Source: Mactra quadrangularis (taxonomy: Eukaryota > Mollusca > Bivalvia > Venerida > Mactridae). From it: 64,000 nucleotides of DNA. A program made the position numbers and the translations under genes. The stretch is from positions 40,873,733 through 40,937,732 of the forward strand of contig CM046299.1 of the NCBI GenBank assembly GCA_025267735.1, given 5' to 3'. The notes under the pieces were generated by a model. It was given only the letters and a program-made list of their open reading frames with translations. It was not told the origin of the DNA and searched no databases. Shown in pieces: positions 8,497 through 63,068 of the stretch; position 1 is the stretch's first letter, and every line of letters starts with the position of its first letter.

Positions 8497-11400
8497 TCAA
8501 ACTTTTCTCTTCCTATCTGCAGCAGCCCTTTTAAAGTCCCCTTTATGTTGAGTCTTCCAACGCCTATTTTTGACAACTTCAGCACTCTGACCTTGACCTT
8601 TGGGTCCACCTTTGACATCGTAAGATTTTTTAGGTTGACCTTGACCTTGAGCTGGTTTTGCCCTTTGAGCTTTCCATTTTGCTCTATCCTCAGCAGCTTG
8701 ACGTATCACTGCAGGGTCGACTAAAAAATGATCAGGATTTTTAGGAGTCTCTTCATCAGATTCCTGAAATAGCAAATATTTATTAATTAACGAAAAGTTA
8801 AAGAGCAGTTTTTCAGCCCCAGGCAAACATCCCACAATCAAATTGTGACAGGAATATGACTTACTACAAAATATAATTACAAAAGCATGCCAGATATAAC
8901 GATTAATAATAATTTAACAAACCTAAAACTTTTCATCTAGCCGTATGATCACAAAAAGTATGTAAGCATTTTTAATCTAACCTTAGAACTATTACATTTT
9001 GTCTGAAATGGCAATTCAGACACAACTTACAATTATTTATGTCCAAACATACTGCCACTTCGCCAAATTTGTAAAATAAGAAAATCCAATGATTCTAGGC
9101 TCAAAAATACATTTAATCAATATAATGATAAAAATCACTTATTTTCAAAATGACCTACATTTCCTTACTTTCAGTGAAAATCAACAATTTTGATAGAAAT
9201 GTTCAATGGCAGCACCCATGATTATCTGAGAAAAGTGTGAGAAGATCACCAACAATGATAGCGAAAATGTTCCGCATGCAGAGTTAAAATAGAAAATAAT
9301 TCCATAAAGAGCTCAACAACAAACCTCTTCATCTTGATTTGCTCCATTATCATTATTACTCCTTCCTCCTCCCACTACCCTTGGAACAGTAAATGGCCTG
9401 AAATCATATTGATATAATGTTTGAGTATTTGGTCTGAAATCATATTGATATAATGTTTGAGTAAATGGTCTGAAATCATATTGATATAATGTTTGAGTAA
9501 ATGGTCTGAAATCATATAAATATAATGTTTGAGTAAATGGTCTGAAATCATATTGATATAATGTTTGAGTATATGGTCTGAAATCATATTGATATAATGT
9601 TTGAGTAAATGGCCTGAAATCATATTGATATAATGTTTGAGTAAATGGTCTGAAATCATATTGATATAATGTTTGAGTAAATGGTCTAAAATTATATAAA
9701 TATTATGTTACAGTAAATGGTCTAAAATTATATAAATATTATGTCACAGTAAATGGTCTGAAATCATATATATATTAGGTTACAGTAAATGGTCTGAAAT
9801 TATATATATGTTACAGTAAATAGTTTGCAGAGGTTCAATTCAGTTAAAATAACACCTAAGGGAAATATAAAAAGCTGTAGCTGAACAGAGAAATTGTTCA
9901 GCAGAGGGCGGCTCTGCAAAGGTTATACAGTATACTTATTGAAAATATAGTAAATAGACGACAATCAAAACATTTTTAAACTATAATACATGTATTTGCC
10001 CTTTTTTCCTTATATTTAATCAGTTTCATCTCATCTAGATGGGATGCAGTAGCACAGAACAGTACTGGACCAGGACAAAATAAAGCTGGCTGTCCATTGC
10101 ACAAGTTATATTAAAATTGTTGTTGAGCCATGTTGTTTCAAAATCAAGATAAAATAAAACAGTATACCCCCCTCTTCTTCGAAGTGGGGGTATAATAAGT
10201 TAGAACTAACTAAACTAGATAAATAAAGTTATGCTTTCACATATTAATTAAGCAAGAGTTGTCAGCCAACATGTCAGTGAGGTTTATAAACATAATATAC
10301 ACCATTAATTTATAACACATACATTTTGTATGAAGAATATCATGATCTTAAATAACCATGACAACACATACACTGCCCTCCAAAAGTTCCTTCACACATT
10401 CACAATTTACATTGTGCTACATAAAATTTTAAAGTTGTTTGTTTGTTTGGGTTTTACCGCGCACCAACACAGAAAGGTCATATCGCGCTGGTTTTAAAGT
10501 TGTAAAAGCAGTTTATTATAAAATTATTTCAATTTGATTTTTCTAATCAGTACATCTTTCAAATGAATATGAAATAATTAAAACTATCTCAAACTTGATA
10601 GTGGTTCATTGAGATACATTGATCATAGTTTCGGAGGCTGATCGATAACTTTAGCTGCAACTCAAAAAATAAAATGTACCAATAGAAATTTTATTTCCAT
10701 TGCATGAATACTGAATGGAATAAACAATGACATAACAAGTAAATCTGTGAGCTAATGCTCACTAGTGATACCCCCGCAAAAATCTAAAAATATGCGACAA
10801 ACAGGAAGTAGATGAGCAAGGAGCATGAAATCGCTTTACACCACATGGGACTATGGGATGAAGCAATATGCAAAGTATTAGGCTGCTGCATGTTATAGTT
10901 GCTGAGAAAACTGTGACGGAAATTTTGTAACGGACGGATGGACGGACGGACAAGGGTAAAACAGTATACCCCCCTCTTCTTCAAAGCGGGGGTATAATAA
11001 TTCTTCAAATGTGGACATAGAAATTGTAGCAATATAATTAATTGTACTGCGAAGAAACTTTTGGACGGCAATGTAGTATGACATTATGTAGACAGTTGTA
11101 TTTTATATTTCTATAAATCAGGAAGTTTACTAGCACATTATCATATAATGAATCTAGTTGTTATACTATGTAAGTTAATTCAACATTAACCTAAGTCAGG
11201 CTTCCATTAACAATACTTGTAACATTTTAGACCACCCTTTTACAATAAAGTATTGTTATTTCTAATTTAGGCCATGCCATATCGGAATTTTGTTAAGTGT
11301 CCGCGTGCGCGTAGGTTTTAGAGTCCTCAATCAAAATAAAAAACAAAATGTAGGTAAAATTTTCTCAAATAATTCCAATGTTCCGGGATTCGATACGACA

Positions 11401-14400
11401 ATTTAATTCAGGGAAAATTGTGTTGGGCAACAACGTTATTCATCGTAAACAATTCATCATAACCGTGTCGTTATACAATGAACATTTTACGTGAAAAAAA
11501 ACACTAGTCATTTTATATAAGACTCAGAGCATTGTTTTATATTATGAGGATGTTATTCCATTGAAAAAAAAAATATAATGCATTGTTTTTGCCGTAAAAA
11601 TACTTGTGTTTTCTTTTTCGGTTTGTGTTTTTGTGAATAGGTACCTAGGTTTGTCAAATTTGAGTTGAGGCTTAACAGAATTCCAATTTGGCATGGCCTA
11701 ATATGAATTTGCTAGACTGAAAACAGTCATTCAAATCTACAGATTAATAGTCCGCTAATGAAGGAAATAATATATTTTATAAATAGGCAGCCAGCCAATT
11801 CTTGTTGTAAACTTGTACATAAAAAGTATTTTATTCTGAAAATGGTAGTTTTTCACTTGAGTTAAGTGTTAGGTTTCTTTGTCATTAATTATTATTTTTT
11901 ACTGATTCATGCATACACTCATAGCTAAGACTCTGGTTTCAAAAACGAGGCCAACATCATCTTTTGAATATGCCATAGGCATACAATAAATTCACAGGTT
12001 GATTTCAAACACAACACATCAACCATGACCAATTCAGAAATTATAAGAAAGAAATGTGGGACAATTATTTTCAAATTTTAAAAGACTTCAGTCATGAAAA
12101 GTACATCATGAAACATAATTATACAGACACAAAACAATACTGTGAAAGTCAAAATTACACTATGTGTCCCAACATATTTATCCATTAGTAATTGGTAATA
12201 CAATGGAACCCCTCTAAATCGGAAACCCTCCAAACCGGAATTCTCTCCAAACCGGATTTTTTTTCAAGTCCGGAATATTTCTCCTCTTTGTTCATATAAC
12301 AAAAACCTCCTCTATTCCGGAAAACCCTGTATTCCGGAAACCGGACGAGTTTTAGCCTAAACTTCATATTTCGTCACGCAAAATGACCCCTGTATATCGG
12401 AAGTCGAAAGGTGAGAATTGATAACAGCGAGCTGGATATACGACTCTCGTGAAGGTGATTGTTTCCTTTGTTTAACAGGTGTGCGTGAAATTGACTATTC
12501 GTGATAATCGCTATGTAAACATTGAAAGATGTCTTATTGAATGTGTGTGAAAACTATCAAATGTAAGGTAGGGGTTTGTATGATTTTAGCGATAATTACA
12601 CTGATGGATGGAACATTTAATTGATAATTAAGGATTTAATTCGTTCACTAATTGCATTTTGATCTAAAATGAACCAACCTGTGGTAAACTTTGATTGTAG
12701 AAAATGATTTGAAAGACGTATGTAATCGATCAATTACGGCGGTGTTTAATTGATATACGATTGACCAAAATTAATTGTTCTATGTTTGAGTCGTAAAAAT
12801 GACCAATGAAACATATTTATACACGAATTTACAGGTTTTAGTAAAATTATCATGTATTAGTCATAATTAAAGCTTTGTGTATTTATATCTGTTTTCTGTT
12901 ATCTTTCTTTTTATCATATTTTATATTGATGTATCCAGATTTACTCACTATAACTTGCATATTATAATGATGCAATGTGGAATGGTACAATAACAATGAG
13001 TTCTACGAAGTTGTTATCAGCATAATGATAAAGAGCTATAGTTTATGGTGCTATACTTGTTTAGCTTGATTATTCAAAAGTTGTTGTAACAACTTACAAC
13101 CTTCCAGCCAGCATCTTGTCTCTCAGTACTAAGCAATATGATAGAATATAGGTTGTTTTTAATAGAAACAATGATGCCTATTATGGCAAGGATGTAAACC
13201 ACTCTGTAGATGGCTTTCCAATGAAAAATAGTCAAATATTCACTGACTCAGTCATGCCTACAAAGATTTCTAGTATGCATATAAGACATATTAATCTACG
13301 AATATAACTACAGCACAATACTACATCTTGGAATACATGTAGATTGAACTTGTATCAATAGTTAAATATCACAAACACTTAATACAAGATCAATACAGAG
13401 TGCCAACGAACACACATGTTAAATATTATAGTCAGAATGTAAAACCCCTCTATTCCGGAAACCTCTCCAAACCGGAATTTTTGCCCGGTCCGGAACACTT
13501 CCGGTTTAGAGGGGTTTTACTGTATTTTGTTAATATTTAGCTCTTAATAAATAGCTATCTCAAAATGTTATTGCCCTGTTGATCCTTATAGTTTCCAAAT
13601 GTAGAGTTTTGAATTTCTGGCAAAAATTTTGGCGACATTAAATCGGCCCTGTTTTTTCTACCCCATTATGTGACAATAAAACAAACCTCAATCATACCTT
13701 ATATTAGATAGTTCATCAGCAGAGTCTGCGTCATCAGCACCAACAACGTTAGCATCATAAGTGTCGTCATATTCATCATCATACATATTTCTTGTATAGT
13801 CACCAGTATTGTTATCATCATCGTCATATACAAACTCTTTAACAATACTGTAATCTCTACTTATATTAGATTTTATATCTTTTAATTCTGTCTTATCACC
13901 AATAACTATATCTTTTGTTTTATCCCTGTAAATTCAAATAAGTATATTATTATAGTACATGCCTGCCAAAAGATAAAAAAGTAAAGTAATTGGATTTTAT
14001 AGTCTTAGTTTCATGCTTAAGCATGTTCACAGATTTTACAACAATTACCTCTGTTCGTCAGGCTACTGGGATCTATCTAACAATCTCCGTGTGGAGCCTT
14101 TAACTCTGCTTAGTGTAGCCCACATATTGGCAAAATGGAATTTTACCACCCTCACAGGAACACATTTTCACCTGGGTGGAGTACAGCAATTGTATGTAAA
14201 TTTCTTACTCAAGGAAATAAGGTGGTGGTACTAAACCAATTTTATGACTGCACACACAACCGAGTAAAAAGCCTACCCAGGGAGATTGACAGATAGATAT
14301 CAGGGCAGTATATTATCAAAAATCTTACAATAATTTAACAATACAACATAGAAGGATACTGTATAGCGGGTATTATCTGCGGGGGTTTTATTTTGGCTTT

Positions 14401-17400
14401 ATTGGCGGAAAATGAAAATGCGCCAAATATAAACACCGCGAATACAAATCTCCGCAGTATTAAGTCGCCGCCATATTGTTTACTAAGAGACATTACTCTT
14501 AATAAATTGTGTATTCATTAAAATGTGCATGTATCAACTCCCTAAAAATCAAGAATTATGTAGTGAATTTGGTGAGATTTATTATGTAAATGAACAAAAT
14601 TTAGTATTTTGAATAATACAAAGGAATTGATTCAAGTTATGTATGTAGCAACGAAAATACAGACAGACAACACAGTCATTCTTACAACTAGACGACAGGT
14701 TCCATCAAAACTCGGTTACGAAACTCGACGACTCTGCCGCCATTTTGTTTACTTTAATAAACCCGTTTGTCGGTCATTTCCGAATCTTCACGAGTTTAGT
14801 TCAAGCACTTATTTGATTGTCGTAAAAAACAAAGTCATCTTTAGTATTGCAATTAATTTAAGTGCTTGCTAGCAAACCGAAGACAAACTTCTCATCACCT
14901 AATTTAACAAATTGAGTAAAAAGAGCGGAGATAGTGCTTATGTAGCTTATTATTTATTGATTTTCAAAAAAAAAATTACTGTCAAATTTCGTCACGTGAC
15001 AACGCTTTATAATTGATTTTGTCTGTTTAAAGACTACGTGTGTTGTTTATACACTGTTTGTGACAAGCTGTTAATTATAAAAATTGTCGGACTTTGACCA
15101 ATGGATTCAGGTAAATTGGCGATTTTTAAAGAGTGTGTGGCCGCAAACTTTAATACCGATAACTTTTAACAAAGACAAAGGCGTTATCACCGACTATTAA
15201 CAAACATACGAAAATTTTGATTGTTCATTACAACAAATTGTTATTATTATAAGACTCTCGCGAGTATGGCTTACTTATGCAATTTGTCGAACGATCAATC
15301 AATCTTAGCGGCACCCAGGTAATATTTTTAACAAAAACATTCACATTAAATGGCGATTCTTATCACATGATTAAACTTGTCCTGTCAATGCATTGTCATA
15401 GAAATAGATAATCTGCTGTGTAAGCGTTGGTTTTTCACACGTCCGCTAAGATTATACAACTTTGGTGACACTTAGTTAATTCAAAAATTTGAAAAGTCGC
15501 GGTCGGTAGTAAACGCTTATACAGGTAAATTGACCTTTTAGTGTAAATGACAGAGTTATGTACCTTTGACCATCTTTCATCCGGAGGTTTAAAATTGGCG
15601 CTCAGAGTAATTTCCGCCAATATTTAGCATCGCCAATACAAAACTCTCTTGTTTACGCGAAATTTTTGCCCCGCAGAAATAACCCGCTATACAGTATACG
15701 ACTAAAATCGATTGTAAGACGCTTGATAATATGAGCCCCAATACCTTAATAACCAGAGGCAATAGCTTAACAGCTGGTAAGTATGCATTAGCATGAAACT
15801 TACAAGACCACAAACTGCAAATATTTTTATCTTTTTCTAAACCAGCTGTAAAGTTGTAAGCGATGATCATAGACAACTTTAAATAAAAGATTATTTTGTC
15901 TTTTGTCACGCAAAATGTCATTAGAGGTTATAAATGTAATGTTGTTGAGCCAGGTGTAAAAGCAACAGTCACTTAGAATTAACAGACCAAATAAATAAGT
16001 CAAATGCCACCCTTATACTTTATAACCTTACAAAAGGAAAAAATGTCCAAAATTATAATACCTGCCATAACTCACACATTCTGAATTAATAACTGACATA
16101 AAAGTGGTAACTAAGAAGTTTTATGACAGTATCATTATTTGACCTATTAAACCATTTGGTCTATATCAAGATGCAGTCAACCAACACTGACTACAGTACA
16201 ACCTTTTTTTAACCCCACCAACTGGGAGGAACTTATGTGTGTTATCATCAGAGGTTGTTGCTCCGTGGAAGTTAAATTCAGTTAAACTTAATTAAATACA
16301 TATTTTATTATATAAATTGGATTGGATAACAGGCATATAATGCCTATTCACATCCTCTCCATCAGTTAAACTTATGCCTAAGAATATATAGATACAAGAA
16401 ATGTAATGTGGAAACCATATTAAAGCTGTATTAAAAAGCTTTAATGCAAAAAATACAAAGGGAAATAATCCATAACAAGTAAATCTGTGAGCTAATGCTC
16501 ACTAGTGATACCCCCGCCAAAATCTAAAAATATGCGACAAACAGGAAGTAGATGAGCAAGGAGCATGAAATCGCTTTACACCACATGGGACTATGGGATG
16601 AAGCAATATGCAAAGTATTAGGCTGCTGCATAATATAGTTGCTGAGAAAACTGCGACGGAAATTTCGTAACGGACGGACGGACGCACGCACGCACGGACA
16701 AGGGTAAAACAGTATACCCCCCTCTTCTTCGAAGCGGGGGTATAATAAAGGCAGGTAGAGTTGTGGTTACTTTCTAATTCTGTCCATCACATGGTATGTT
16801 ATCATTGTAAGAAGTGTCATAAAGATCTGACAATAAACGGCAGAAAAATATGGTGAAGGAAAAACTTAAACGCAATTGTAAACGACACCAGAAACCCGCC
16901 CGCCCGACTGTGTTTCTCCAAACTATTAGCCAAACTTTTTCTTTGAAAAATCAGACTAATAAAACATCAAAAGATGTTGTTGTACAGAGGGATTTTCTGC
17001 ACCGTGCCACTTTACTGAGGTTATACTGTATTACTAACCCATTATACATGTCATGTCACAACTATTCAAAGAATTTATTGGGATGGTGATCGCAAATTTT
17101 AGTAGAAACAGGAATATGGGTTTTCTACTCTTGGCAGATTTCTTTTCTGGGCTTTTTTTCATAGCATCAAATCTACAATTGGTCAAAGGGGTATTGAAGT
17201 ACCAGCAACAAGCATTTATCAAATGCAAGTAAACATCATGTAATAACATTTTACGAGCTTTAAAACATGTTATGATGAACATAACAACTACATATATTAT
17301 ATATTTACGGTATACAGTCCCTCAAACAAATAAAACTATTTCTAGAATTATTCGGCTGCCATAAAACATAGTTATAGTTTAGAATTTTATACTTAATAAT

Positions 17401-20400
17401 CTAATCATATAGCATACAGGCCCTTAGGAATGGGGAACTAGGGGGCTTAACCTCAATTGTAGAAAGTGATTTATACTAAACCAGACTGAGAAAAACATCA
17501 CAAAAATCTGCCTTCCAAAAATATATTCAGGTAAGACTCCTCATCTAAAAATGCATCCTACGCCACTGCATTAACAATTACTGTGAACATATAAACAATA
17601 ATGATATCACAAAATACTAGGAAAGAATATGAATGAAATAGAATATTCCAAACTTTTGAAATAATATACCAATTTTACTTCAATATTTTAGTACTTCAGA
17701 AAAGGACATTTTCTTAGCTCATTTAGTAAAAGAATCAATCATAATTCAAAATTTAAAAAGTGTCCTCTATAACCTACATTTTTCCTAGTCTAACTTTTTG
17801 TAGATCTATATCAGTTCTATGAAAGACATCAAATTCATCATAGTCATATACGTTCTTTCTTTGATGTACCAAACTAGGTGGTGTCACAGCTCTCTTCTTC
17901 CTATATTTAAAAAAAAAAACATGATAAATAATAAAGATTAAACTAAAAAAATAATTTATTTTAACATGATCAGTCTTTGAATTTAGCCAATGGACCAACT
18001 CCATTGAAATCTTGGTCTAGTAACTTTAAGAATGTGAGTGGTTGAACGGTACATCAACGTTTTACAACTACCACTTTCAATATTCAATGAAATATCATTA
18101 TTTGTTGATGTAGCGTTGATTTAAATTACGATATACAGTATCCACTAAAAGTTTAGACACAAAAGAAATTTACAACAAGAAATGTAATGTGGAAACCACA
18201 TTAAAGCCAGATTTAAAAACTTTAACGCAAAAAATTACGAAGGGAAATAATCCATAATAAAGGCAGATAGAGTTGCGGTTACTTTCTAATTCTGTTCACC
18301 ACAAGGTATGTTATCATTGTATGAAGTTTCGTAAAGATCTGACAAAAAATGGCAAAAATATATGCTAAATTGAAAAACTTAAACACAATTGTTAATGACA
18401 CCGGATGTCTGCCCATCTTTCATCAAACTATTAGCTGAATTCTTTCGTTGAAAAGTCCAGCTAATAATTTATTTTAGCATGATCAGTCTTCAAATTTAGC
18501 CAGTTTACCGACTCTATCGAAATCTTAGTTGGTCTAGTGACTTTAAGAATGTGAGTGGTCGAACGGTACACCTACTTTTTACAACTACCACTTTCAATAT
18601 TCAATAAAAAATTGTTATTTGTTGAAGAATTGTTAATTTAATTTACGATATACAGTATCCACTAAAAGTTTAGACACAAAAGAAATTTACAACAATTCTT
18701 GAATTTTGATGATTTTTTTTGTAGAATCATTATTATTTTAAAATATTTAAGTACGGTTTGTGATAAAATGAAAACAAATTTCATAAATGCAACACATCAG
18801 ATTCAGAATCTGTCATCTTAAAGCCTCCAAAACCATATTTATTGCAATTATTTTCCATAACAAACTTTTTTGCTATTTTTGTAGTCGCAATTATAATTGT
18901 GTTAACCAAAAAATAAAGGAGAACTACAAAGTATTTTAAAATAAACAGTAATAAAATTTTAGATAAAGCTATTTAGTAGGCCTACAATGTGACAAATGTC
19001 TCCAAACGTTTGGTGGGTACCATATATAATGTGTATGCTTACATGTACATGTACTTATCAAAATGGACTGCATATGTTAACAAACTATAAAAATTTTTGC
19101 TTGTTTCATTTTTTATGCTTGGAAGCTGAGAAACCAAATGTTAATAGATATACAAGCATATTAAAATATATGTACATGTATAATTTTTTATATTAAAACA
19201 CTATTATTATGTATGTAATATTGTCAAATGATAATTCTATATATGTCTTTCAACATTATAATATGCATATTTTCATGTAAATGTTATTACAAATGTATGT
19301 ATCATGTTATGGGCCAGTGGCTTCTATCATTATCAAATAAACTGTAAACTGTATATTGTATATTTGTACAACTATTGTACAAGGTGCTGATATAAGTACA
19401 GTCATGATTACCTCCCCTGAGTAACTCCATACAGTAACAATTATCATACCTTGGTAATGTTCTATCAACATTATTTAATGATTCAGGAAGTCTATCTTCT
19501 AACACAGCATTTATAACTTTCTCTAAATTATATCCCATCTCTTCTAAACATAACTGTAACAGTAATAGTTAACTTTATTACAAGGGACTTATAAAGTCAT
19601 AAGATCATAGCAAAATAAACAATCATTTGGTCTTCATTGATACTTGTACCAACATTCCCAATAAATAGAAAAAAATCAGATACAGTACAACCACTCTTGA
19701 ACAACACCCACTGTGAGAATCTAAATTATGTCACTGTTCAGAGGTTGATGCTCAGCAGAGGTTAAATTCAAATAAAATTATGCCAAAGGGAAATATTAAA
19801 AGCTGGCATTGTGCAGAGGATTTGATCCGTAACGGGTCGCTCTGCAGAGGTTAGACTTACTCTCCAATGCATCGGTTTGAAAGATTCACTCCAACTCGTT
19901 CACATTCTACCTCTGCTAAAATACTACGTGTAAACTGATATTTCTATTTTTATACAGAGACACATATACATTTGAATTGCATGACTGTCACATGGTTTTT
20001 AAAAATAGATGCAAAAATTTCTCACGCCTGTAATTTCAAAATGTCGAAATGCAAAGATGTTGGACAGTTTTGCATTAGTTATATAATGGAAAATTAACAA
20101 AAAATGAAAGTGAACATTGATCTTTTTGAACGTGTATCTCCGATCTTTTAACAATAAACATAGAGCAACTTATTGCACCGTGTAGCCACGCTACATATGA
20201 CGTCATACGAGGTTGCCTTCGCCACTAGTATGATCATACCATATAAGGCGTTGTTTACCCGTTCAACCAATGAAAATGTGTATAAAGTTTTTTAACTAAA
20301 TTGGAATTTGGTAAACTTTAATTGGTCATTGAAAGGTTCATAGTAAAGGTCAATATCATAAATCGACACGTTTTAAGGCAGCGGGTGAATGTAATGTATT

Positions 20401-23400
20401 CACTGAGCTGCGAGGGGAGTGTAAGGTTATACTGTAGTGGATAAAATTACTTTTCTTTCTTCCAAAATTGCCCATAATAGAGAGTTATTTGATTTATTAA
20501 TAATTGTAGATTATACTAATTTATTTAGCTTAATTGCTTAACAAGTTTTTACAACTTATACTAATCATTTTTTAAGTCTGCTTCCTAGTCGCCCAGAACT
20601 AAGCTAGTATGATAGGGTTGGTTTCTTGCCCAAGGAAACAACAAGATAAGTTTGGATGTTGTTTAAATCAACTTGGAGCTAGCTATTGAATAGCTTCATG
20701 TACCAGTGCGACCTTGTTACCACTACACAGATGTATTGTAAAGCTTAGGTGAGCTAAAAAACAGTTTAGAATCAATTCTGAGATTTCTCTCCATCAAGGG
20801 GGATAACTCTGACATGACTGTTATATATTTACAACAATGGCTCCTGGATTAACATGCATCTTTCTTAATATACTAAAACTTTTGGGGAACCAGTCACAGG
20901 AACTTCTTTTTTCCACCTAACTTTTAGTCATAAAATAAAGCTTCCACATAATAAATTTACATTTTCACATTACAACAACATTAGATAATTAGTAACCCTA
21001 CAATACCTCCACAAAGCCTTCACCTAGTTCTGGTAGAAGATCTTTAACAGATGAAATCATTGATTCTAATTCTACACCAGTTACTTGGGTAGCACACGCT
21101 CCTAAATCATCCTGTAAGTATAGGTTGAATAGTCATAAATTACAAAGTTAGAGATTATATACAGTTGGTATAGTTTATAAGTGGAATTGACATTTAAACA
21201 TCTGTGACACAAAAATAATATAAGTGTATAAGATTGGAATATTTTACTGGTGTGATTTTAAAGGACTGACCTTTACCTTTGACTGGGGAAGCCAGAAGTT
21301 AAAAGCTTAATTCTTAGTACAATCCAGCAAGCCTATGTTTAAAGTTACCTTTCATTGAAACCATAACACATACATAATTGCAAACTCCCTGCAGCATGAT
21401 GGCAAACTCCTTTATTCAAAGACTAACATGTTTAAGTGGCAATGAGTGACATAACTGCTGTGAGCAGTGCAAGAAGATGTTACTAAGTGAAATCTCATCA
21501 TGCTTATCTGTGATTTGGCTTCTCGCAAAAAATAGTTTGGCTTTTAGATGTCAGAAATTATTACACTTATCATAGAAGACAATCTGTTAGAATTGCTATT
21601 TATTTTCTGCCAGAACTGTTAGCTGATACCATACCCAAGGATTGATAAAGGCTGAAGTAACAGTAGATATATATGTTTGGACTGATAGCCCTAAGCAATT
21701 AAAAAGTAGACAAAAAATGACAACTGAAAACAGAACATACAATACTTACCATATCCTCAACTTGATAGGCATCATTAGGAATACCACCACTGGAGGCTGA
21801 CACACTTGTTGCAGAAGTAGACGTAGCCCCGCCTACGGCTCCTTCCATTTCCCCTGTAGATCCATCGGGGCTACGTCTACCTCCTCGGTTCATGGCCCCT
21901 TTTGGAGCCTTCCTTTTACCAAATGTAGCAAATGCCAAGTTGACAGCATCTTGAATATACTGCAGTCTAGTTTCATCTCTGAGTAGAGTTAAGTTAAATA
22001 AATGTTAAGACCAAATCATTCTTAGAATTTAGCCAGTGGACTTAAGACCAAGTCCATTAAAATCAATGTCATTCCAGTGACTTTTAGAATGTTAGTGGTC
22101 TGTCAGTCCACCAACTGCTTTCAGCCATCATTTTCCTAATTCAACACAAAATCATTATATGTTGTCATATTGTTTTACAATTATAGGATATTTCATTGCT
22201 GGGCTAACCAGGCAGGTATAAGTATAGGTAAGAAAGAGACTACAAGCAATATCATCATCAAATATGTAAAACAATGCTACAAAAAAAGATACACTTCGCT
22301 TGAAGCTTGTGATAGTATTTCTAGATCACCTTGAAAACTGTGTAAACTTTCATAATCTGCAAGAAACCTGGAATAAACATGTTAAAACAGTTATTCATAC
22401 AACAATTATTTAACAAGATTAGGAATTTTTTTCTTGAAATTGGGAAAAATGGTCATTATTTGGCTTTGGGAATGGGGCCCATATTCGGCCCTTTGAGATA
22501 GGCAGAAAAAGCCCTGTTTCTATCTAATTTGTTAATTGCAGTAACACTAAATTAAGGTAAAATTAAACTTAAACTTATTGTACTAAGAATTAAGCTTTTA
22601 ACTTCTGGCTTCCCCAGTTAAAGGTAAAGGTCAGTCCTTTAAAATCACACCAGTAAAATATTCCAATCTTATACACTTATATTATTTTTGTGTCACAGAT
22701 GTTTAAATGTTAATTCCACTTATAAGTTTAAAATAATTTTTTAAGTTTATGAATATACCTTCTCTCTGATAAAATTGATCCAATGATATGTAAATAGTCT
22801 TCAACATACTCCATTACATTGTCCCTGAAAAACAACAAGTGTGGCATTTATCTTAAAAAGTTTGTTTGTTTTGTTTTTGTTGGGTTTAACACCATAGCAA
22901 CACATTGTATAGGTCATATAATGGCGGTCAGTCTACTCACTTCTCCTGGAAAGGCTAAATCTCTGGATTTAGCTGTTAACCAAATACTAAGCGCATACTT
23001 TCATCAGTGACTGACATCTGCCCTACATAATATAAAATCTATGGTAGGAAGAATGGCTGTAGAAATAATTTCATGACCAAACTCCACAAAGTATGCCCCT
23101 CCCGGGAATTGAACCCATGACCCCTCAATCAGTAGACATGCAAGCTACCAACTGAGCTAGCCCAGCGGCATCTCATAAAGAAATTTTCATTTCAGGCTAC
23201 TCCTACTAAGCAGTTTACAATTTTCTGAAGGGTGTAGATAGTTTTAAGACTTCAGCAGTTCATAGACAGATTGCTTGGTTATTTGTGTTGCATCATAATT
23301 ATGATTGAGTTTTTTTAGTCTGAAGTGCAAACTTTCCTAGGATGAAGTTACATAAAATTTGCATGCTAAGTAGAGAAATTCTAAGTAAAAAAGCATTATA

Positions 23401-26400
23401 ATTCAGTCTGCAATAGTAATACAAATGGAAAAAACCTCAATTACAGCTGTAATAAAGCTATTATTTTGAACTACACTAGCCAAAAAAAGTAGATAAGGCA
23501 ACTGAAGAAATCAGAATTATCTTCCTTAGTAAATTTACTTTATTTCTAGAGTTCATTATCTCGACTATTTTCAGCAGTCCCAACAAAGTCAAGATAATAA
23601 GAAATGACTATCTATAGTACAATGTTACATACAACAAAATATTGAACAAGTAAATCTGTGAGCTAATGCTCACTAGTGATACCCCCGTAAAAATCTAAAA
23701 ATATGCGACAAACAGGAAGTAGATGAGCAAGGAGCATGAAATGGCTTTACACCACATGGGACTATGGGATGAAGCAATATGCAAAGTATTAGGCTGCTGC
23801 ATGTTATAGTTGCTGAGAAAACTGCTATAATAAGCAGGACAAGATAATTTCTCAGGCATCCATGAATAAGTTTATTTATTTTGTTGGGTTTAACGCTGTA
23901 GTAACACATTGTATAGGTCACATAACGGCATCCAGTGCACCTAGCTTTCCTGGACCCTTGTCTATAGCCAGTACTCACCTACCCTTCCATAAGGCCAGAA
24001 ACTTCTCCATGCACCTTATTAATGGAGGAAAATTGACATTGTTGTCAAATTTTAATAGAAGGGTATAACCTCCGTTATATATGAACCCGTACCCCCTACG
24101 GGACACTAGATTCGAAATCAAGACGCACTACCAACAGCGCTACCGACCCAGGTTTCCATAAATAAGAGCAAACCTACCTTTTCTCCAGTATTGGTTGAAT
24201 ACAACATACTGATATAATAGCCTGGTAAACAGTTAATAAACTTTTCTTTGCTTGTAATACTTGCTGTTTTAATATCTGTCTTTCACTAGAACAATGATAA
24301 AACAAGAAATTTAATGGGGAAAATACATTTAAGCCGGATTTTCATCAAGATATGACTATAAATGATCGAGATATCCTACATATAAGAAACTTTAAAGCAA
24401 AAACTACAAAGGGAAATAATCCATAATAAAGCCAGGTAGAGTTGTGGTTACTATCTAATTCTGTTCATCACATGGTATGCTATCAATGTATGAAGTTTTA
24501 TAAGTTTTCGCCAAACTAAAAGCCGAATTTTTTTTGTTGAAATCCGGGTAAAAACCAACGATAACTAGAGACAATACAGCAAATCAGGATTTTTTGGGGG
24601 CGGGGATGGGGGCTATCAGCTTCCATTGGAATAACAAAAATGGACATCTTTAAAGGTCATTATGGAATTGAAAGTCTCAGGTAAAGAATCCAAATCAATT
24701 ACCACTCCTTACAATCAACTAATGACAGATGGAAATGTTGCGGTCCTAAAGCTAAGAAGAATAATGTAATAGGTTTGTTTGTGTCAGAATCCTCTGGGCT
24801 GAACAAAGTTATCTTTACATTTTATTGCTGAAAAGCATGCAACCAAAAGAGATAATATTCTATTGTTCTGGGTACAAACATTTTTAATCCAACTTAGTCA
24901 CACACAGATATATCTAGTACAAATAAAGTTTATTTCTGCTGAAAACCCCATCAACTTGAGATTTGAATCCAATCTATTATCAAAGTAGGTAAGTTTGAGT
25001 TAATTCTCTGTGACAAGTACAATAAAAAACTTAAATGTGGCTTACCTCACATCCATATTTCTTAGTTTCAACGCTGACAATAACTCAGGAATAACTGACT
25101 CATAAAATGCTGGCAGTCTGTATAAATTAAAGAAAAACAAAAAAATAAAGTAATTTTTGACCCATAAGAAATCGATGAAGATTAGGGGTCCATATCATAA
25201 AAGGTCTTACGATCAATTTTAACTTGTACACTATTCTATATTGTACTGTTAAATTATCTTTAATATTTTTGAAAACATGCTGCCCAGATTCAGAGTTCAA
25301 AGGACCATTTTTTAAGAACAAAATGCCCTGATGATGATGCCAACCATACATAAAAAAGTTTAAGGCAATAATCAGAACATAGATTCAGTCAAATACAGAT
25401 TTTTACTTTTTTTAAATTGTTGTCCAGTCTACACTCCTTCATGGCAGTGAATCCTGGGCACCGTCCACTTCAGACCTACATCGTCTACAACGTAATGATA
25501 GAGCCATGGTCCGTTGGATCTGTGGTGTTAAGCCTAATGATAATGTCACCAGAGATTCTCTGTACACCAAATTAGGAATTCAAGAGGTAGCCATAGCTCT
25601 CCGTACCAAACGCCTGAGGTGGTCTGGCCATGTTTCTCGTAACAATTGTACCAACACCATTATGAACATGGTTATTCCAAGCGCCCGTGGGCGTGGAAGA
25701 CCTAGAAAATCGTGGTCTGACTGCATCAAGACCGACTTAAGTGTATGTGGTATGGGCAATACCAGTCTACACAAAAGGAACGGATGGAGAGCTGGTGTTA
25801 GACGTTCAAGCCGCCTGCTGCCTACCTCAGTATCTAGGACACCCGCAGCAGATGACAAATAAACTCAGGATATGTATGTATGTATCGAAAAAAATTAATC
25901 AGCTGTTAGTGATGCATACATTAACCCTGCTGATTTAAATATTCACAACAGTTTTTCAATAATTACCATAGATAATTGCATGCAGGGCATTTTTTACAGT
26001 ATGTGGGTAAGGGACAGTGGGGGAAATTTATTGCAATTTCATTGATAGGGGAATGAAAAATCAAAGTTAACTTTCAAATTTGGGGAAAAGTGCATGATTT
26101 CAAGGAAACTTTAGAAGGGGAAGGCACTTGTAAACGGCCCCTGCTATATAAGGGAAAAAGCCTTGGCATATATATATCAGTGGGGTTGAGTATTTAAATC
26201 AGTGGGGTTAATGTCAGCAGCACTAATACTAGAATAAAATTTATCAATATTGCATTATATGAAAGTTAATGTAAAAAAGAAAACAAATAAAAATAAAGTA
26301 ACAAACAATTAACAAAAACAAAACATTTTAGTGACCTACCTCATTAAAAACTCACTATCATGAAAAGATTGACATGCAGCAGGATAAACTTCCAGGAAAG

Positions 26401-29400
26401 CATTCAAGGTCATTCCAATATCACATAAATATAATACAATATCTTTAAACTCTACAGAATCCATGACAACTAAAGCTTGTTTCTTGTTACCATGGTCACT
26501 AAGTTTCTGGGGTGAATCAGAGTCTAAATAAATACCACATTTACCTAGAACACTGTCAAATACCTGAAAATTGGTTCCAAGATATAATATGATGTACAAA
26601 TACAATGCAGTGTTCTCATTAGAAACCGGATGCAAACCTAAAATGTCGGCTAGAAAGACCATTAACTAAAAGGCCTGTTAAAATTGGGAAAAAACAAGTA
26701 AATCTGTGAGCTAATGCTCACTAGTGATACCCCCACAAAAATCTAAAGATATGCGACAAACAGGAAGTAGATGAGCAAGGAGCATGAAATCGCTTTACAC
26801 CACATGGGACTATGGGATGAAGCAATATGCAAAGTATTAGGCTGCTGCATGTTATAGTTGCTGAGAAAACTGCGACGGAAATTTTGTAACGGACGGACGC
26901 ACGGACAAGGGTAAAACAGTATACCCCCCTCTTCTTCAAAGTGGGGGTATAATAAAGTAAGAAAGAAATTGCCCCCAGGCTTCCCTAGAAAGCCTATTAC
27001 TTTTCTATTTGAGCCTATTTCACAAAATCTTACAGAGAACACTGCAATGCCATCCAATATTACATAAAACACTCGTAAAAAGATGGTTTAGTTTAACAAT
27101 TGAAATTTATTTCAGACATATTTACCCATTAGGATGTACAGTGGATCTTGTGTTAAGCGACCATACAAGGGAGAGACAAAAAGTGGTCGTTTAAGACAAT
27201 GGTCTCTTAAGACAAATGTTGATTACCGACATTGAAGCCGTTCTGACAATCTAAAATTCGTCATTTTCATAGAACATTTTCTGACAACGGGACGATTTTA
27301 ACTGCATGGGCTTTTATTTAAATGTCGTCAAATGCATACAAATAATGGGCAAATCGATTTTTCTTTATTCAAAACATCATAAATTCAGCTTCAAATTGCA
27401 ATAGTTTATTTCAATTAAGTGAAACTTATGTTTAAAAAACGATTGCGAAACGGCCGTTTTTGTTTACATACATGTTAAAATCCGTTATTCCCGGACATTT
27501 TCGCCATAAAAACAACCAATATTTAGGTCATCAGAGTAAATGCTGTTACAGTTAAAACTGTGAAATTCACACAATTTATAAGAATTAATTGTGACAATTG
27601 TCCAACACGCCAGCTAATTCTTTGATCTAACGAGCGCTGCAAACTACATGCGTAAAAATGTTGACCTCGTTTGATATTAGAACGTGACGCTATTTTCGGA
27701 AAACGTGTCTATAATGTCCTCAATATTGACCTTTCTTTGTTTAAATTTACAAATTGTTTCTGTTTACGTTTTTTTTAATGAATATTACTTTACACGTTCT
27801 ATGCACTATTAAAAGGCAAATTTGCAGACTTGAAATGTGTAAGAAAACAATAACTCTCCACGGTGATTGAGTGGTAAGAACGGATGTTTTAATCGACCCT
27901 GATATGGGGCTAATTGTCCAATGTGTATTATCATATTAGTGTCACTTAGTTGATTGTTCCCACTTACCCCTTTATCTTACAGTATTTATGACTGTCAATT
28001 ATTGATTTTTAGAGCCTGACATACGACTTTATAGGTGATAGACATTGAGACGACGTACTCCCGGTGTATATTTCTAATTACCGATTTTTATCGATTTTTG
28101 CCAAATACGATTTATTTGAGCCGGTCGTTTAACACAAATAAGTCAGTCAGTTTCGGCCAAAACCAGTGGCCGCTGGTCGCGTTAGACAAAAGTCGCTTAA
28201 GGCAAAGATTTAAAGAGTTAAAATGGTCCGTGGGAACTAAGAGTGGTCGCTTAGTGCAAATGGTCGCTTAGGAGACGTGGTCGCTTATGCAAGATTAACT
28301 GTAGTTATAATACTTCATACAATCTAATTGTTATACATGCAGCAACTGTTGGTCTTTTTTTATATATACACATAAAAGGTTATTTCACAAACAGAAAGTG
28401 CTAGAAAACAGCTTTACAAACAGTTAAAATTTTGAAAATATCTTTACTATAACTAAAGTTATGACAATTTCAATATCAAAATTTCATACCAATTTTTGGA
28501 AATAAATTGTTATAAAAGTATTGCACGCGCCTGAAAATTAACGGAACTCTCCCAAGCCAATTTTTCACCATTTTTGTCTTAACATTTACGTGCATGTGTC
28601 TCTAAAGACAGGGTTACAATTCGCCAATTCCGCAAATGGCAAAAAAACTTTGAAAGTGGTGAAAGTTTTTTAAAAAAAGCATATTTTCATCTGTAAAACT
28701 GAAATGTATCTATGTGTCTGACCCTGACTCAAACAGAAAACAATCAATGAATGGTTGCTATTATATAAAAAAATTTAGATTTTTATGGCTCAAAATAATC
28801 TGCTATTAGTATATTTAAGTATTATTCGTGAAATTTTGGTCACGTTTTTGTGAGTTTTTATCACTTTCTTTTATGTGGTAATGCCTAATTTCAGTCACAA
28901 CTAATTAAAGGCAAAAAAATCACTGGCAACCTATATGGATAACTTAAACTGCTTACTTCTGATATGGTACCAACTGTCTGTGCCAAGTCATCTTTATATT
29001 TAGGTTGTTGTGTAAATATATTATCAATCATTTTAGTCAACAATGTTCCATTTCCTCTTCCATACAATACACATAGATCCATTAGTTTTGGTATATCAAA
29101 GATAAAATTCTCATATAGTATATCACCAAACACTTTTGGGGTTAGATGACATTCCTGTAATTACCAGAAAGTAATGCAAGATGTATAAAGCAATAGCTCT
29201 ATCTCCGATATTTGTTTTGTTTGGGTTTAACACTGTAGCAACACATAGTATAGGTCAGATCACAGCAGTCAGCCAACCTACTTACACTTCCTAAAAAGGC
29301 TAAACCTCTGGATGAAGGTTTAGAAGCCAAATAAAATGCCTCACAATCTTGAATTTGATCCATTTCACCCCTTTTTATCTTAAGCAGTCATTTTTGTGAT

Positions 29401-49100: not shown

Positions 49101-52092
49101 TAAAATCACATTATATTCTTACCTCAGTGATTCCTTGAGCATAAAACTTTATCTTGCTGGCTCACTATTAGGGCAACACCTAAAACGTGTATCACGCATA
49201 TAAAGTTTAAGAATTGTAAGCTGGAATTTAAAACAAAAAATCGCTTTTATATATACAGTCTGACGCACGTACATTATTATAAAGCGATGGACAATCGGTT
49301 TCAAAACTCTGAACATTGACAAATGGTTTATGAGTAAAGACCAAACCATTTCGTTATTGATTATGCATTCGTTGTGTATGCTTCCATTCTTAATGTCTTG
49401 ACAATCACATTCTATGAAAGCTTGAACGAACACGTTTGACCTTTTGATTAAGACGCTGGACTTGGAATTATTTAAAAGCCATCCTTGAGTTAGTTCGAAT
49501 CATTTCTAAAACCCACTTAGTTACTCCCCTAATCAAGATACTTTATGACAACCTCGCTGCATTGGACTATTTACTGATTATTATAAAACAAAACCTGTTT
49601 TACAATCACGATTAATAATATATTTGTGTAAAAGCTTTCTTTTCAGAACAGTTGTTTTTACATTGTATGTTTGTTCTGCTATATATACATGTAAATTGAA
49701 TTTGATTTTATTTTTTCTGAACAGAACTATAACTTATCACTATCATATTAACTTATCTGAAACCAATTGCAATCAACTGGGTATTGTGACAACCGACTGT
49801 TTTTAGCCTAGGATGTATAGCATCCAGAGTTCTTTTAGAACACTTTTTATGTCAACATAAAAGCTACCTTGAAGGACAAGGCATCACCAGTTCTTCTGTG
49901 TCTGTAACATTTTATTGTGTATTTCAGGGAGTTTGCTATCAAAAGAGAACATCTTTTTGGTTACAGGCATTGCTTTAGTATCAATTATAGTCGTTATCAT
50001 CATCATCATATGCTGTGTTGTCTATCTTTACAGGTAAATCTATGTTTAGTTAACGTTGCAGTGTAGATATATTTGAATTACTCTACTAAATAACCCATAA
50101 ATACATACATGTAGACATGTGCAATGTATCACAAGTATAAACTTAATTGGAAATCACAAGTATAAACTTAATTGGAAATCTTATCTAATGAGCATTAAAT
50201 TTATGAAACATTACTTCCGAATGATATACTTACTAAAAACCAGCTGATATTTCCACGAACTTCACAAACTTTGAAATATACACGTTATCGGAGTTCTGGT
50301 CTACAGGTAGAACGTCCTTATAGATTTACAAGTTACGAATGCGAATTCAACCAGAAGCACTGCCTATTACAACAATCATGAATGTCTCTACGATTGCTTT
50401 ACCCACATAGGTGTTATTTCGTACTTCGAACGTTGGCTGTTTGAAGGTGAAGTCATTGAACAGGATATATCGTACAAGAATGTTATGTCAAAATTAAAGT
50501 TAAAAAAGTGCGGTTTATAGTCAGTTCCCATATATATATGTTCAGCTGACTTAATAATCAATTTTGTACGATAACTGCTTATCATTGAAATCACACAATA
50601 CTAGATGACTCCTCGAAGCACCCATTTTCACCTGATTGGAGAGGCACAACTTTAAGCATATTTATTGCAGAAAGTTAGAAGTACCTCTAGTAGGATTCTA
50701 ATCCGGAACCTATCGATCCGTAAGCGCACGTTCTACCATTGAACCTATGATTCTACCATCCGGCAGCAGATATAAATTTGCATTTTAACTTTACATTTGT
50801 TTTTCAGGAAAGTTAGGAAAGGCCCACGTGAAGCATCCGACAACGTGGTTAACAACCGAACATACAGCAAAAGAATGACACTAAATCATTGCGACATGGA
50901 TGAAGAATATGCTAATATACTAGATAGTGACGTAGGCATTTCTGACGTCACATCCGTGTCATATAGACCGCAGTTACCAAGTAGAGAAAATGATAATTAT
51001 TCAGGAGAGTTTAAAGGCCATGATATCATTACACTTGATAATTATAGCACACCACGTGATACTCTAAAAATCTGCATACAAGACGAGTATTCAATAACTT
51101 ATGATGATCCAATACGGATAAATGTTACACCTGATGAAACAAATAACAAAGTTGAATGTAATTTGAAACCCAAAAAGAAGTCAGAGCGTAAGTTATCAGA
51201 TAAAACTGTCTTAGAACGTAAGGTATCGGACAAAACTGTCTTAGAACGTAAGGTATCGGACAAAAGTGTCGCACAACGTCAGGTATCGGAGAAAAGTATC
51301 ACTGAACGTAAGATATCGGACAAAACTGTCCTAGAACGTAAGTTATCGGACAAAACTGTCCTAGAACGTAAGTTATCGGACAAAACTGGCGTAGATCAAA
51401 GGGTATCGGACAAAACTATTGAAGAGTGCGATAAAGAAATAGATAAACCAGTTGATACAGAAACTGTCGACAACTCTGATGACATTAAAGGGGATAATAA
51501 GAATCGAGTAAGTGATTATGAAATAACAGATTTTGCAAATAAAATTACTGTATCAATCGACGATAAATCGGATTCAGAGAACAGTGAGTATGAAATCACA
51601 TTTGTCGATAATGGTAATGACAACTTAAAGAAAACGTGTATATTAAGTGAACATGTTTGTCTCGATTGCTTAACACCAGAACATTTGAAAGCTCTGGGTA
51701 TTACTATTGTGCCAGATGATAATGAGTATTCAAAATGTAAAGACTTATCAAGGAGATTTTCTGCGCCTTGCAGAGCGTGTCATTGTGATACAGAAGCATG
51801 CTCAAACTGTGAAATACAACTTGAAGAGATGCCAAAACATTCTAATGACATTGAAACATCTACTAATCATTCTGATAAAATGAAATGTGCAGGAAATTCA
51901 GAGACATGCGTTGAAAAAGATGGAAATAAAAGAAAGTGTAGTGTTTGTCATTCAGAGTATGACAGAATAGGAAAATATGATAGAAAAGATTGGATAAAGT
52001 ACACTGAGAATGTTTACGAAAAGTTTGGTCACTTTACTACTTTTAATGTTCGAAACAATAATGGAACCATTAAAAGGATAAATTCTACATAA
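34105..52092 (+). CDS. Type I membrane receptor with SRCR-like ectodomain and repeat-bearing cytoplasmic tail
   Basis: Ten exons: 34105-34201, 40628-40772, 42888-43078, 44753-44899, 46371-46474, 46778-46961, 47674-47758, 48841-48941, 49928-50033 and 50808-52092. All are GT-AG, all phases match, and the sum is 2445 nt (814 residues). A signal peptide (MELRYNLAVFFISMVLVLC) is followed by a divergent SRCR-like domain at about residues 35-138 (FRLFKG, EGIVQVKLYKDW, NIC, AVCKL, then SYCKSAVICC). A region at 145-289 has a CTNEC...CEC pattern that may be WSC-like, with several N-glycosylation sequons. A Thr/Ser stalk spans about 290-351, one transmembrane helix about 360-386, and a cytoplasmic tail 387-814. 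The tail has eight RKxSDK repeats at 514-593, RRFSAP at 702-707 and Cys clusters. Ligand and function are unknown. An upstream in-frame ATG (33997) exists, but 34105 places the hydrophobic signal at the N-terminus. Further small exons could have been missed. Confidence 0.82.
36240..36475 (+). pseudogene. 3' end of a LINE
   Basis: It parallels 55680-55925. Shared blocks are TCAGTACCATCATATGCAAT-like, CTTAACTTTTTGAAGGAAAT, CGATATGACCTTTTTGTGTT and GGTGCGCCGTAAAACCCAAA. The coding end is degenerate. Intron 1 of the receptor gene. Confidence 0.75.
37027..37172 (+). mobile_element. SINE family 1 fragment, diverged
   Basis: AACAGTTAAATCCTGAGACG, GATTTAGCCTTTC and ATGACCTATACAAGGCGTTG follow the family 1 order. 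5' truncated; receptor intron 1. Confidence 0.65.
37650..37960. repeat. Purine-rich GA tract
   Basis: About 300 bp of mostly G and A on the plus strand, with GGGAGA and GAGAGG repeats densest at 37750-37860. Open frames on either strand here are by-products of the composition. Receptor intron 1. Confidence 0.88.
38519..38782. mobile_element. MITE with GGCGGATCCAG-like ends, copy 3
   Basis: Ends TAGGCGGATCTAGCGG and CCTGGATCCGC, with inner C-runs. Receptor intron 1. Confidence 0.7.
39294..39608 (+). mobile_element. AAGGTAC-ended MITE, copy 1
   Basis: Begins TTAAGGTACGCTTTCACAGA and ends CTGTGAACTAGTACCTTTAA, an imperfect terminal inverted repeat. Blocks CAACTTAAATATCAACTTTT and AAATGATGGTGTTTC are shared with 40195-40551 (inverted) and 52141-52487. 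The flanking TTAA suggests piggyBac-like insertion but is not consistent in all copies. Confidence 0.72.
39751..39845. mobile_element. MITE with GGCGGATCCAG-like ends, truncated copy 4
   Basis: AGGCGGATCCAGC and a G-run are followed by the family block GCTTAACATAGATTAAATGG; the other end is missing. Confidence 0.6.
40195..40551 (-). mobile_element. AAGGTAC-ended MITE, copy 2, inverted
   Basis: This is the reverse complement of copy 1 across most of its length, ending CTGTGAAAGAGTACCTTTAA about 75 bp before receptor exon 2. With copy 1 it forms an inverted pair. Confidence 0.72.
41975..42143 (+). mobile_element. SINE family 1, 5' truncated
   Basis: Starts at GGGCAGTTGTCAGTCACTGA and runs through the ATCCAGAGATTTAGC hairpin to ATGTGTTGCTACGGCGTTAA and AAACAAACAAAC. 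Receptor intron 2. Confidence 0.82.
45008..45190 (-). repeat. tRNA-derived repeat, family 4
   Basis: On the minus strand GGCATGGCTGAGAGGTTAC (A-box like) and GGTTTGAATCCCATCC (B-box like) are spaced as in a tRNA with a long variable arm. It resembles 20574-20735. Receptor intron 4. Confidence 0.6.
47067..47222 (+). mobile_element. SINE family 2, 3' truncated
   Basis: Head ATTAGCGCAGTTGGTAGTGT and B-box-like GGATTTGAATCC are followed by GGTTATACCC and CCATTAATAAGG. Receptor intron 6. Confidence 0.7.
50690..50765 (-). repeat. tRNA-like relic before the last receptor exon
   Basis: On the minus strand TAGGTTCAATGGTAGAACGT and GGATTAGAATCC sit at A-box and B-box spacing. No proper acceptor stem was identified, so a SINE head relic is likelier than a tRNA gene. 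Confidence 0.4.
51187..51426 (+). repeat. Eight coding 30-bp repeats, RKxSDKTVLE
   Basis: Eight uninterrupted 10-codon units read RK(L/V/I)SDK(T/S)VLE with variants RQVSEKSITE and QRVSDKTIEE. The Arg-Lys-x-Ser core matches basophilic kinase substrates. Units are close at DNA level, so copy number may vary between individuals. Confidence 0.93.
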
Positions 52093-61499: not shown

Positions 61500-62168
61500 A
61501 TTCTTTGTTGCTGCTGTTGTTATTGAACGATTGTTTAATGTTGTTGTTTTTATTGTTTATGTCGCTGTTTATGTTGTTGTTGTTGTTGTTAATAATGATG
61601 CTGTTGTTGTTGTTGTTGCTGTTGTTAATGTTGTTATTAATGTTGTTGTTGTTAATTTTGTTGCTATTGTTGTTGTAGCTTATATTGTAGCTAATGTTAA
61701 TGTTGTAAATGTGTATGTTGTTGCTAATGATGCTGTTGTTCTTGTTAATGTTAATGCTGTTGTAAATGTTGTTATTCATGTTGTTTATGTTAATCTGTTT
61801 GCTATTGTTGTCGTAGTGTGTAATGTTGCTAATGTTAATGGTGTTATTGTTAATAATGTTGTTAATCTTGTTGCTGTTAAGTTATTCATGTTAATGATGT
61901 TGTTGTCGTTAGTGTTGTTGTTGTTATTGTTATTATTGTTATTTTTGTAGGTGTAATTGTTATTGTTGTTGTTATTGTAGTTGTTATTGTTGTAGTTGTG
62001 GTTGTTGTAGTTGTTATTGTTGCTATTGTTATTATTGTAGTTGTTAATGTTTTTGTTGTAAATGTTGATGTTGTTGTTCTTAATGTTAATGTTACTGCTA
62101 ATGGTGTTAATGTTGCTGGTAATGCTGTTATTAACGTTGTTGCTAACTTTAATATTTTTGTTGTTAAC
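61500..62168. repeat. Degenerate GTT trinucleotide block, about 670 bp
   Basis: Mostly GTT, ATT and AAT trinucleotides kept in register, so frames stay open on both strands (Val-rich plus strand, Asn-rich minus strand). I treat these as repeat-derived, not genes. Confidence 0.9.
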
Positions 62169-62975: not shown

Positions 62976-63068
62976 TTAACATTCTTCAACTTCCCGTTTC
63001 ATGGAAAAAGTACAGAGTTTTAATAAACATTTGACTTACACTGATCACAAAAAAGTCACTAAGTAAAT

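What the first reader, a model, noticed from the sequence alone, without database searches (positions are those of the whole stretch)
9325..9817. In-frame ladder of duplicated splice acceptors in ASCC2
A 36-bp tandem repeat was born across the intron 14/exon 15 boundary, so nearly every unit carries a TTTCAG-type acceptor followed by CCATTT. Eight consecutive units are open in the exon frame, each adding 12 residues such as TQTLYQYDFRPF. ASCC2 could exist as a size ladder, and repeat copy number would set the range. Because 36 is a multiple of 3, any choice keeps the CUE-containing protein in frame.
Basis: partly seen in the sequence, partly recalled or inferred. Interest (0 to 1): 0.75.

Follow-up and report, generated by a model that had tools for sequence, protein, structure and literature searches.

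The report
Repeated splice acceptors in clam ASCC2
In a clam gene, a 36-letter piece spanning the end of an intron and the start of an exon is repeated twelve times, so the gene carries twelve possible splice points, of which nine would give full proteins differing by 12-residue steps and three a broken message; similar arrays are known in lancelets, where the extra sites are reported not to disturb splicing.

Summary
The array is real. On the minus strand of a bivalve window (closest ASCC2 found: Mactra antiquata), a 16-exon ASCC2 gene carries 12 units of exactly 36 bp across the intron 14/exon 15 junction; all 12 end in an AG acceptor (10 TTTCAG, 2 TTTTAG). The exon start codes a widely conserved motif (RPFTxPxV), so the repeat came from the exon edge. 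In silico, 9 of 12 acceptors give full-length proteins of 758-854 aa in 12-residue steps; the 3 upstream ones hit a TAA and predict nonsense-mediated decay, so "any choice keeps the frame" is wrong. Openness of 8 units is weak evidence for coding: it is expected in 39-66% of comparable random units, a second frame is open too, and three of four variants change residues. Of 120 listed homologues, 118 have no insertion there (2 not measurable); two searches aimed at the repeat peptide found no protein carrying it. This fits the known "mirage" structures of lancelet (compare human CBS), where regular splicing is reported. Most likely the last acceptor dominates with minor leakage; a true isoform ladder remains possible, and RNA would decide. 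No RNA or population data could be reached.

The parts
8497..32191 (-). ASCC2 gene, 16 coding exons, all introns GT-AG, 758-aa product with the canonical exon 15 acceptor
   Evidence: tblastn of P0001 (Mactra antiquata) finds all 16 exons; splice joints and translation with no internal stop; PDB match to human ASCC2 6yxq_B, E 3.5e-12, for exon 5; CUE domain at residues 475-514
13698..13925 (-). exon 14, ends AG|GTATGA in phase 2
9398..9829 (-). array of 12 units of 36 bp, each ending in an AG acceptor; unit 1 (9829-9794) is divergent
9686..9829 (-). units 1-4, older type (ACTGTAAC...); units 2-4 carry TAA in the exon frame, so acceptors 9794, 9758, 9722 give a premature stop 450, 414 and 378 nt before the exon 15 end
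9398..9685 (-). units 5-12, open in the exon frame, each adding 12 residues of the type FTQTLYQYDFRP
9325..9397 (-). canonical exon 15 (73 nt, 70% purine), codes (R)PFTVPRVVGGG...; the repeat reaches to 9388, about 10 bp into it
   Evidence: motif in homologues
8497..8763 (-). exon 16, last coding exon

Best explanation
A minisatellite of the 'mirage' type was born by tandem duplication of the last ~26 nt of intron 14 together with the first ~10 nt of exon 15 of ASCC2 and then expanded to 12 units. Most units look like a small complete 3' splice site (branch-point-like motif, AT/T-rich tract, AG). Shown: the anatomy, the origin from the exon edge, and the reading of each possible product. Inferred: the last acceptor (9398) makes most mRNA, because it shares the best matrix score with 9614, is closest to the exon donor and to the purine-rich part of the exon, and gives the conserved protein; upstream acceptors leak at low level, giving minor +12n-residue forms (acceptors 4-11) or premature-stop messages for decay (acceptors 1-3). 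The longer forms could well be tolerated, because the insertion lies after the CUE domain and leaves RPFT or a close variant (RPYT, RPNT) at the exon 14 joint and RPFTVPRV at the exon 15 side.
For: Repeat and acceptors. Gene and products: (9 of 12 full length, 3 of 12 premature stop). The spacing from DDTYD to P(R/Q)VL is kept, without insertion, in 118 of 120 listed homologues, 2 not measurable (sequences). A matrix from the gene's 14 other acceptors gives 9398 and 9614 the top score (8.54; leave-one-out median of real sites 7.68; 0.8% of 974 other intronic AGs score as high), the rest 4.5-7.0 (first version). Canonical exon 15 has 12 GGA/GAA/GAG triplets in 73 nt, the array 0 in 432 nt. Precedents: lancelet mirages are reported to keep regular splicing (PMC3087553 and PMC3902484, passages); in human CBS 844ins68, a duplicated intron 7/exon 8 junction, the distal site is strongly favoured (PMC2630376, passage), with traces of a second transcript (PMC1334203, passage).
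Against: No RNA was available, so site use is not shown. The lead of 9398 comes from its first exon base: when exon bases are left out, units 5-8 and 10-12 tie at 7.67 and units 9 and 1 score higher (8.56, 8.23). The leftmost acceptor (9794, premature stop) is thus among the better ones, and scanning from a branch point upstream of the array would pick it first. Unit 12 has lost the TTTAC branch-point-like motif that 10 of the 12 units have; 5 of the 14 other introns also lack any yTnAy motif in that range, so this weighs little. PMC3087553 itself notes that the copied signals could act as cryptic sites. The matrix rests on 14 sites.
Confidence: 0.6

Rival explanations
1. True isoform ladder: several of the nine in-frame acceptors are used at a sizeable level (say 10% or more of messages together), so ASCC2 exists as a series from 758 to 854 aa, and the range follows repeat copy number.
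For: 12 similar acceptors at 36-nt steps, 9 keeping the frame; 10 of 12 units with a TTTAC motif 24-29 nt before the exon start; array acceptors lie within the range of the gene's real acceptors in all four matrix versions; seven of the nine choices leave RPFT at the exon 14 joint, the other two RPYT (9578) and RPNT (9434).
Against: Openness is expected by chance in 39% (shuffled unit) or 66% (intron-like middle) of units, and another frame is also open; of the four variants among units 5-12 one is silent and three change the residue (F to Y, Q to L, F to N), so no sign of coding constraint; none of 131 listed proteins has the peptide; lancelet mirages are reported to splice normally.
Confidence: 0.25
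2. Poison array: upstream acceptors (9794, 9758, 9722), met first in transcription, are used often and send part of the ASCC2 message to nonsense-mediated decay, so the array lowers expression.
For: Three acceptors give a TAA 378-450 nt before the exon 15/16 joint, far enough for decay by the usual 50-55 nt rule (recalled); 9794 is well scored; units 1, 2 and 4 carry TGTAAC, a branch-point-like sequence.
Against: Far from the exon donor and the purine-rich part; 9758 and 9722 are among the weakest acceptors in the first matrix version (4.53, 4.70); precedents favour the authentic site.
Confidence: 0.08
3. Units 5-12 have become a constant part of exon 15 through the 9686 acceptor, so the normal protein is 854 aa.
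For: All eight units are open; the TTTTAG at 9686 is the first acceptor after the last stop.
Against: 9686 is one of the weakest acceptors in the first matrix version (4.70); no insert in 118 of 120 listed homologues, 2 not measurable; no coding constraint between units.
Confidence: 0.03
4. Copy number, or the array itself, is an assembly artefact.
For: Near-identical short repeats are easily mis-assembled (general knowledge); no reads were available to check.
Against: Units differ in an ordered way (older type upstream, newer type downstream, 12 of 36 columns variable in units 2-12), exact 36-nt phase throughout; the whole array is only 432 bp.
Confidence: 0.04

Closest known systems
'Mirage' minisatellites of amphioxus (Adh3; globin BflGb6 and BflGb9; TnC; PGBD5)
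   Same: Tandem repeats over an intron-exon boundary that copy the splice signal; BflGb6 copies the 3' end of an intron plus the 5' part of the next exon, as here; concerted inner units and excluded edges in BflGb6 (PMC3087553, PMC3902484, passages).
   Different: Here 36 bp, a multiple of 3, against 150-160 bp (BflGb6), 157 bp (BflGb9) or 10-72 bp (Adh3); a mollusc, another gene; 8 units are open in the exon frame. Length instability and somatic instability, reported in amphioxus, were not tested here.
Human CBS 844ins68
   Same: Duplicated intron 7/exon 8 junction gives two splice sites; the distal one is strongly favoured (PMC2630376, passage; that passage calls them donor sites, while the title of the cited Romano 2002 says 3' splice site). 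Traces of a second transcript, seen only in the nucleus (PMC1334203, passage).
   Different: One extra copy of 68 bp, not a multiple of 3 and not an array.
Human CBS 31-bp VNTR c.1444_1467+7
   Same: Polymorphic tandem repeat named as running from the exon to intron position +7, 16-21 copies (PMC2630376, passages).
   Different: At the donor side; 31 bp is not a multiple of 3. Its effect on splicing is recalled, not seen in a call.
NAGNAG / tandem acceptors
   Same: Neighbouring acceptors that change the protein by whole codons (PMC3250501, search listing with start of abstract).
   Different: 3-nt spacing; here 36 nt, with branch-point-like motifs of their own in most units.

Membership tests
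Mirage minisatellite (tandem duplication of an intron-exon boundary) | Tandem repeat unit spans an authentic intron-exon boundary | tested here: met
   Array reaches 9388, ~10 bp into exon 15, whose start is conserved coding sequence; the boundary rests on homology and GT-AG fit, not RNA
Mirage minisatellite (tandem duplication of an intron-exon boundary) | Units carry copies of the splice signal | tested here: met
   12 of 12 units end in AG of TTTCAG/TTTTAG type
Mirage minisatellite (tandem duplication of an intron-exon boundary) | Homogenised inner units, diverged edge units | tested here: inconclusive
   Upstream units 1-4 diverged, units 5-12 differ by 0-4 nt; on the exon side unit 12 differs from the common sequence by 2 nt, no more than the inner unit 9
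Mirage minisatellite (tandem duplication of an intron-exon boundary) | Length instability between alleles | not testable with these tools
   One assembly only; the genome search did not complete
Mirage minisatellite (tandem duplication of an intron-exon boundary) | Regular mRNA splicing not disturbed | not testable with these tools
   No RNA data
   No RNA; no listed protein with the repeat peptide
   3 of 12 give a premature stop
   Of four variants in units 5-12 three change the residue; openness near chance. Four variants are too few to exclude weak constraint
ASCC2 | Sequence relation over the whole protein and a CUE domain | tested here: met
   P0001 aligns exon by exon; CUE E 1.2e-07, 31.7 bits against a cutoff of 21.1; 6yxq_B for one exon

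The most novel reading that the evidence does not exclude
A minisatellite has turned a single acceptor into a running array of complete 3' splice sites, so that ASCC2 in this clam is made as a ladder of up to nine proteins in 12-residue steps plus a poison class, with allele length setting both the size range and the share lost to decay; copy-number alleles would then act as a natural test of how the spliceosome chooses among near-identical sites.
Probability: 0.15. Interest if true: 0.7.

Novelty: new member of a known kind. Interest (0 to 1): 0.4.

Why it matters
Twelve similar acceptors at exact 36-nt steps, nine of them in frame, form a natural test of first-site against last-site choice by the spliceosome. 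It also shows that boundary-spanning minisatellites, which the papers seen here describe in lancelet and at human CBS, occur in a bivalve too, and gives a case where the unit length makes most outcomes survivable. If only the last acceptor is used, the case is an example of how an authentic site wins over near-exact copies.

Tried and rejected
Considered and rejected: that the repeat is an intronic satellite that met the exon by chance. The exon-side part (CCATTTACT) codes the PFT of the widely conserved RPFTxPxV, so the exon is the likely source; no other ungapped copy with up to 9 mismatches lies on either strand of the window.

Rejected: the open frame as proof of coding (controls). Rejected: 36-bp constancy as proof of frame selection, since the stop-bearing units 2-4 are 36 bp too.

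Led nowhere: the genome search on the window's own assembly did not complete (8 tries), so copies elsewhere in the genome, other boundary repeats and allelic forms were not examined. A first acceptor matrix with small pseudocount was too noisy (leave-one-out scores of real sites from -5.33 to 14.9) and was replaced. Literature searches listed no paper on such an array in ASCC2 or in a bivalve; for most only the best 8-20 papers were listed, the library holds open-licence papers only, and held none at all. The lancelet Adh3 paper was not held under a DOI tried from memory. Passages of two ASCC2 papers (PMC8800115, PMC7608686) and of PMC2427040 (a reference entry) said nothing on this segment.

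Limits: homologue counts rest on the 120 listed of 1062 proteins. RPF is not in all of them: P0023, P0027, P0063 and P0081, for instance, have another form there. The protein collection is clustered at 90% identity and listed nothing closer than Mactra antiquata, so absence of the peptide says little about this species. The full-length region search scored residues 640-760 alone and returned nothing, ASCC2 homologues included, so it has no positive control; the fragment search did return 11 proteins; I read 5 of the 11, and a script checked all 131 listed proteins for QTLYQ or YQYDF: none.

Full report
What is there. The window is from a bivalve: the best match of the ASCC2 product is Mactra antiquata ASCC2 (P0001), family Mactridae; the species itself is not named, so 'mactrid clam' is an inference. 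P0001 places 16 coding exons on the minus strand. Joining them at GT-AG sites gives one open frame of 758 aa from 32191 to 8497, with a CUE domain at residues 475-514 and a PDB match to human ASCC2 for exon 5.

The array. At the 3' end of intron 14, twelve units of exactly 36 bp run into exon 15. Every unit ends in an AG acceptor, ten TTTCAG and two TTTTAG. Units 1-4 belong to an older type (ACTGTAAC.., unit 3 ACTGTGAC..), units 5-12 to a newer one (ACTCAAACATTATATCAATATGATTTCAG); unit 9 shares the TTTAT piece with units 3 and 4. The last unit joins canonical exon 15 at 9397.

Direction of origin. The exon starts with (AG)G CCA TTT ACT GTT CC, which codes RPFTVP. This motif, with small changes, is found in molluscs and vertebrates among the listed homologues, though not in all (P0023, P0027, P0063 and P0081 differ). 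The spacing from DDTYD to P(R/Q)VL is 25-31 residues in 118 of the 120 listed homologues, could not be measured in 2, and is 28 in the window's canonical form against 124 in the eight-unit form. So the exon is ancestral and the repeat was copied from its edge; units 2-4 still match exon 15 for CCATTTACTGT.

What each acceptor would give. I spliced exon 14 to each of the 12 acceptors. Acceptors at 9686 to 9398 (nine) give full-length proteins of 854 down to 758 aa. Acceptors at 9722, 9758 and 9794 (three) run into TAA codons of units 4, 3 and 2, 378, 414 and 450 nt before the end of exon 15, and should be decay targets. A neat property stays: with seven of the nine, RPFT stands at the exon 14 joint (RPYT and RPNT with the other two), and RPFTVPRV stands at the exon 15 side in all nine.

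Is the open frame evidence of coding? Little. In 20,000 random draws each, the unit is open in the exon frame in 39% when its letters are shuffled and in 66% when the middle 20 nt are drawn from the intron's own statistics; a second frame of units 5-12 is open as well (also visible). Variants among units 5-12 are one silent change (AGA/AGG) and three residue changes (F to Y, Q to L, F to N). The older, closed units are 36 bp too, so unit length was not kept by the reading frame.

Are the acceptors good? With a matrix from the gene's other 14 acceptors (20 intron and 3 exon bases), 9398 and 9614 score 8.54, the others 4.5-7.0; real sites have a leave-one-out median of 7.68 and range 1.4-12.4; 0.8% to 8.4% of 974 other intronic AGs score as high as a given array site. 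The two best ones are those with G as first exon base, as in 10 of the 14 other acceptors. When exon bases are left out, units 5-8 and 10-12 tie at 7.67, and units 9 (8.56) and 1 (8.23) lead, which speaks against a simple win of the last site. Ten of twelve units have TTTAC 24-29 nt before the exon start; units 8 and 12 lack it, but 5 of 14 other introns lack any yTnAy motif at 15-45 nt as well. All branch-point talk here rests on the recalled consensus yUnAy.

Most likely mechanism. Scanning from a distant branch point takes the first AG downstream (PMC1431707, passages on human introns), so if each unit has its own branch point it is a module, and the choice of branch point decides. The canonical exon has 12 GGA/GAA/GAG triplets in 73 nt and the array none in 432 nt; as purine-rich stretches usually help exon definition (recalled), the acceptor next to it should win. 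[quoted passage not shown] I put 0.6 on dominance of 9398 with minor leak, 0.25 on a sizeable ladder, 0.08 on a strong poison effect.

Search for direct evidence. The listed proteins include no close copy of this species' ASCC2, so this is weak. The genome tool did not complete (8 calls).

Known or new. It meets the features of a mirage, a minisatellite over an intron-exon boundary, that could be tested clearly. Allele length variation and regular splicing could not be tested. I therefore file it as a new member of a known kind, with an in-frame unit as its special feature.

Noticed in passing
window 51183-51417 (+): A 30-bp tandem repeat (7.8 copies) lies inside a long open frame (at least 50791-52089, + strand) and codes 10-residue units of the type ERKVSDKTVL; six units carry GTAAG after AGC or AAC and one GTCAG, so most have a donor-like sequence: a possible mirror case of repeated donor-like sites in coding sequence.
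   Followed up: partly
window 9930-9850 (-): Two further acceptor-like AGs lie just upstream of the array in intron 14: TTTGCAG (AG at 9915-9914, matrix score 7.44) and a T-rich stretch ending CCCTTAG (AG at 9857-9856, not among those scoring above 2).
   Followed up: no
window 10762-10980, 16502-16786, 23673-23978, 26721-26984 (-): Related open stretches (VFSATI-CSSLILCILLHPIVPCGVK) recur in introns 14, 13, 7 and 4 of ASCC2, as expected for copies of one mobile element.
   Followed up: no
window 61500-62980: Long TGTTGT-type and TCATCA-type repeat fields, with a 93-bp unit at 62756-62977 at 95% matches.
   Followed up: no
P0122, P0129, P0131: Proteins of unnamed sources run past the end of this same exon (DELTNRR, DELTQRR, DELLARR) into unrelated residues, which suggests that the intron position is old.
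   Followed up: no
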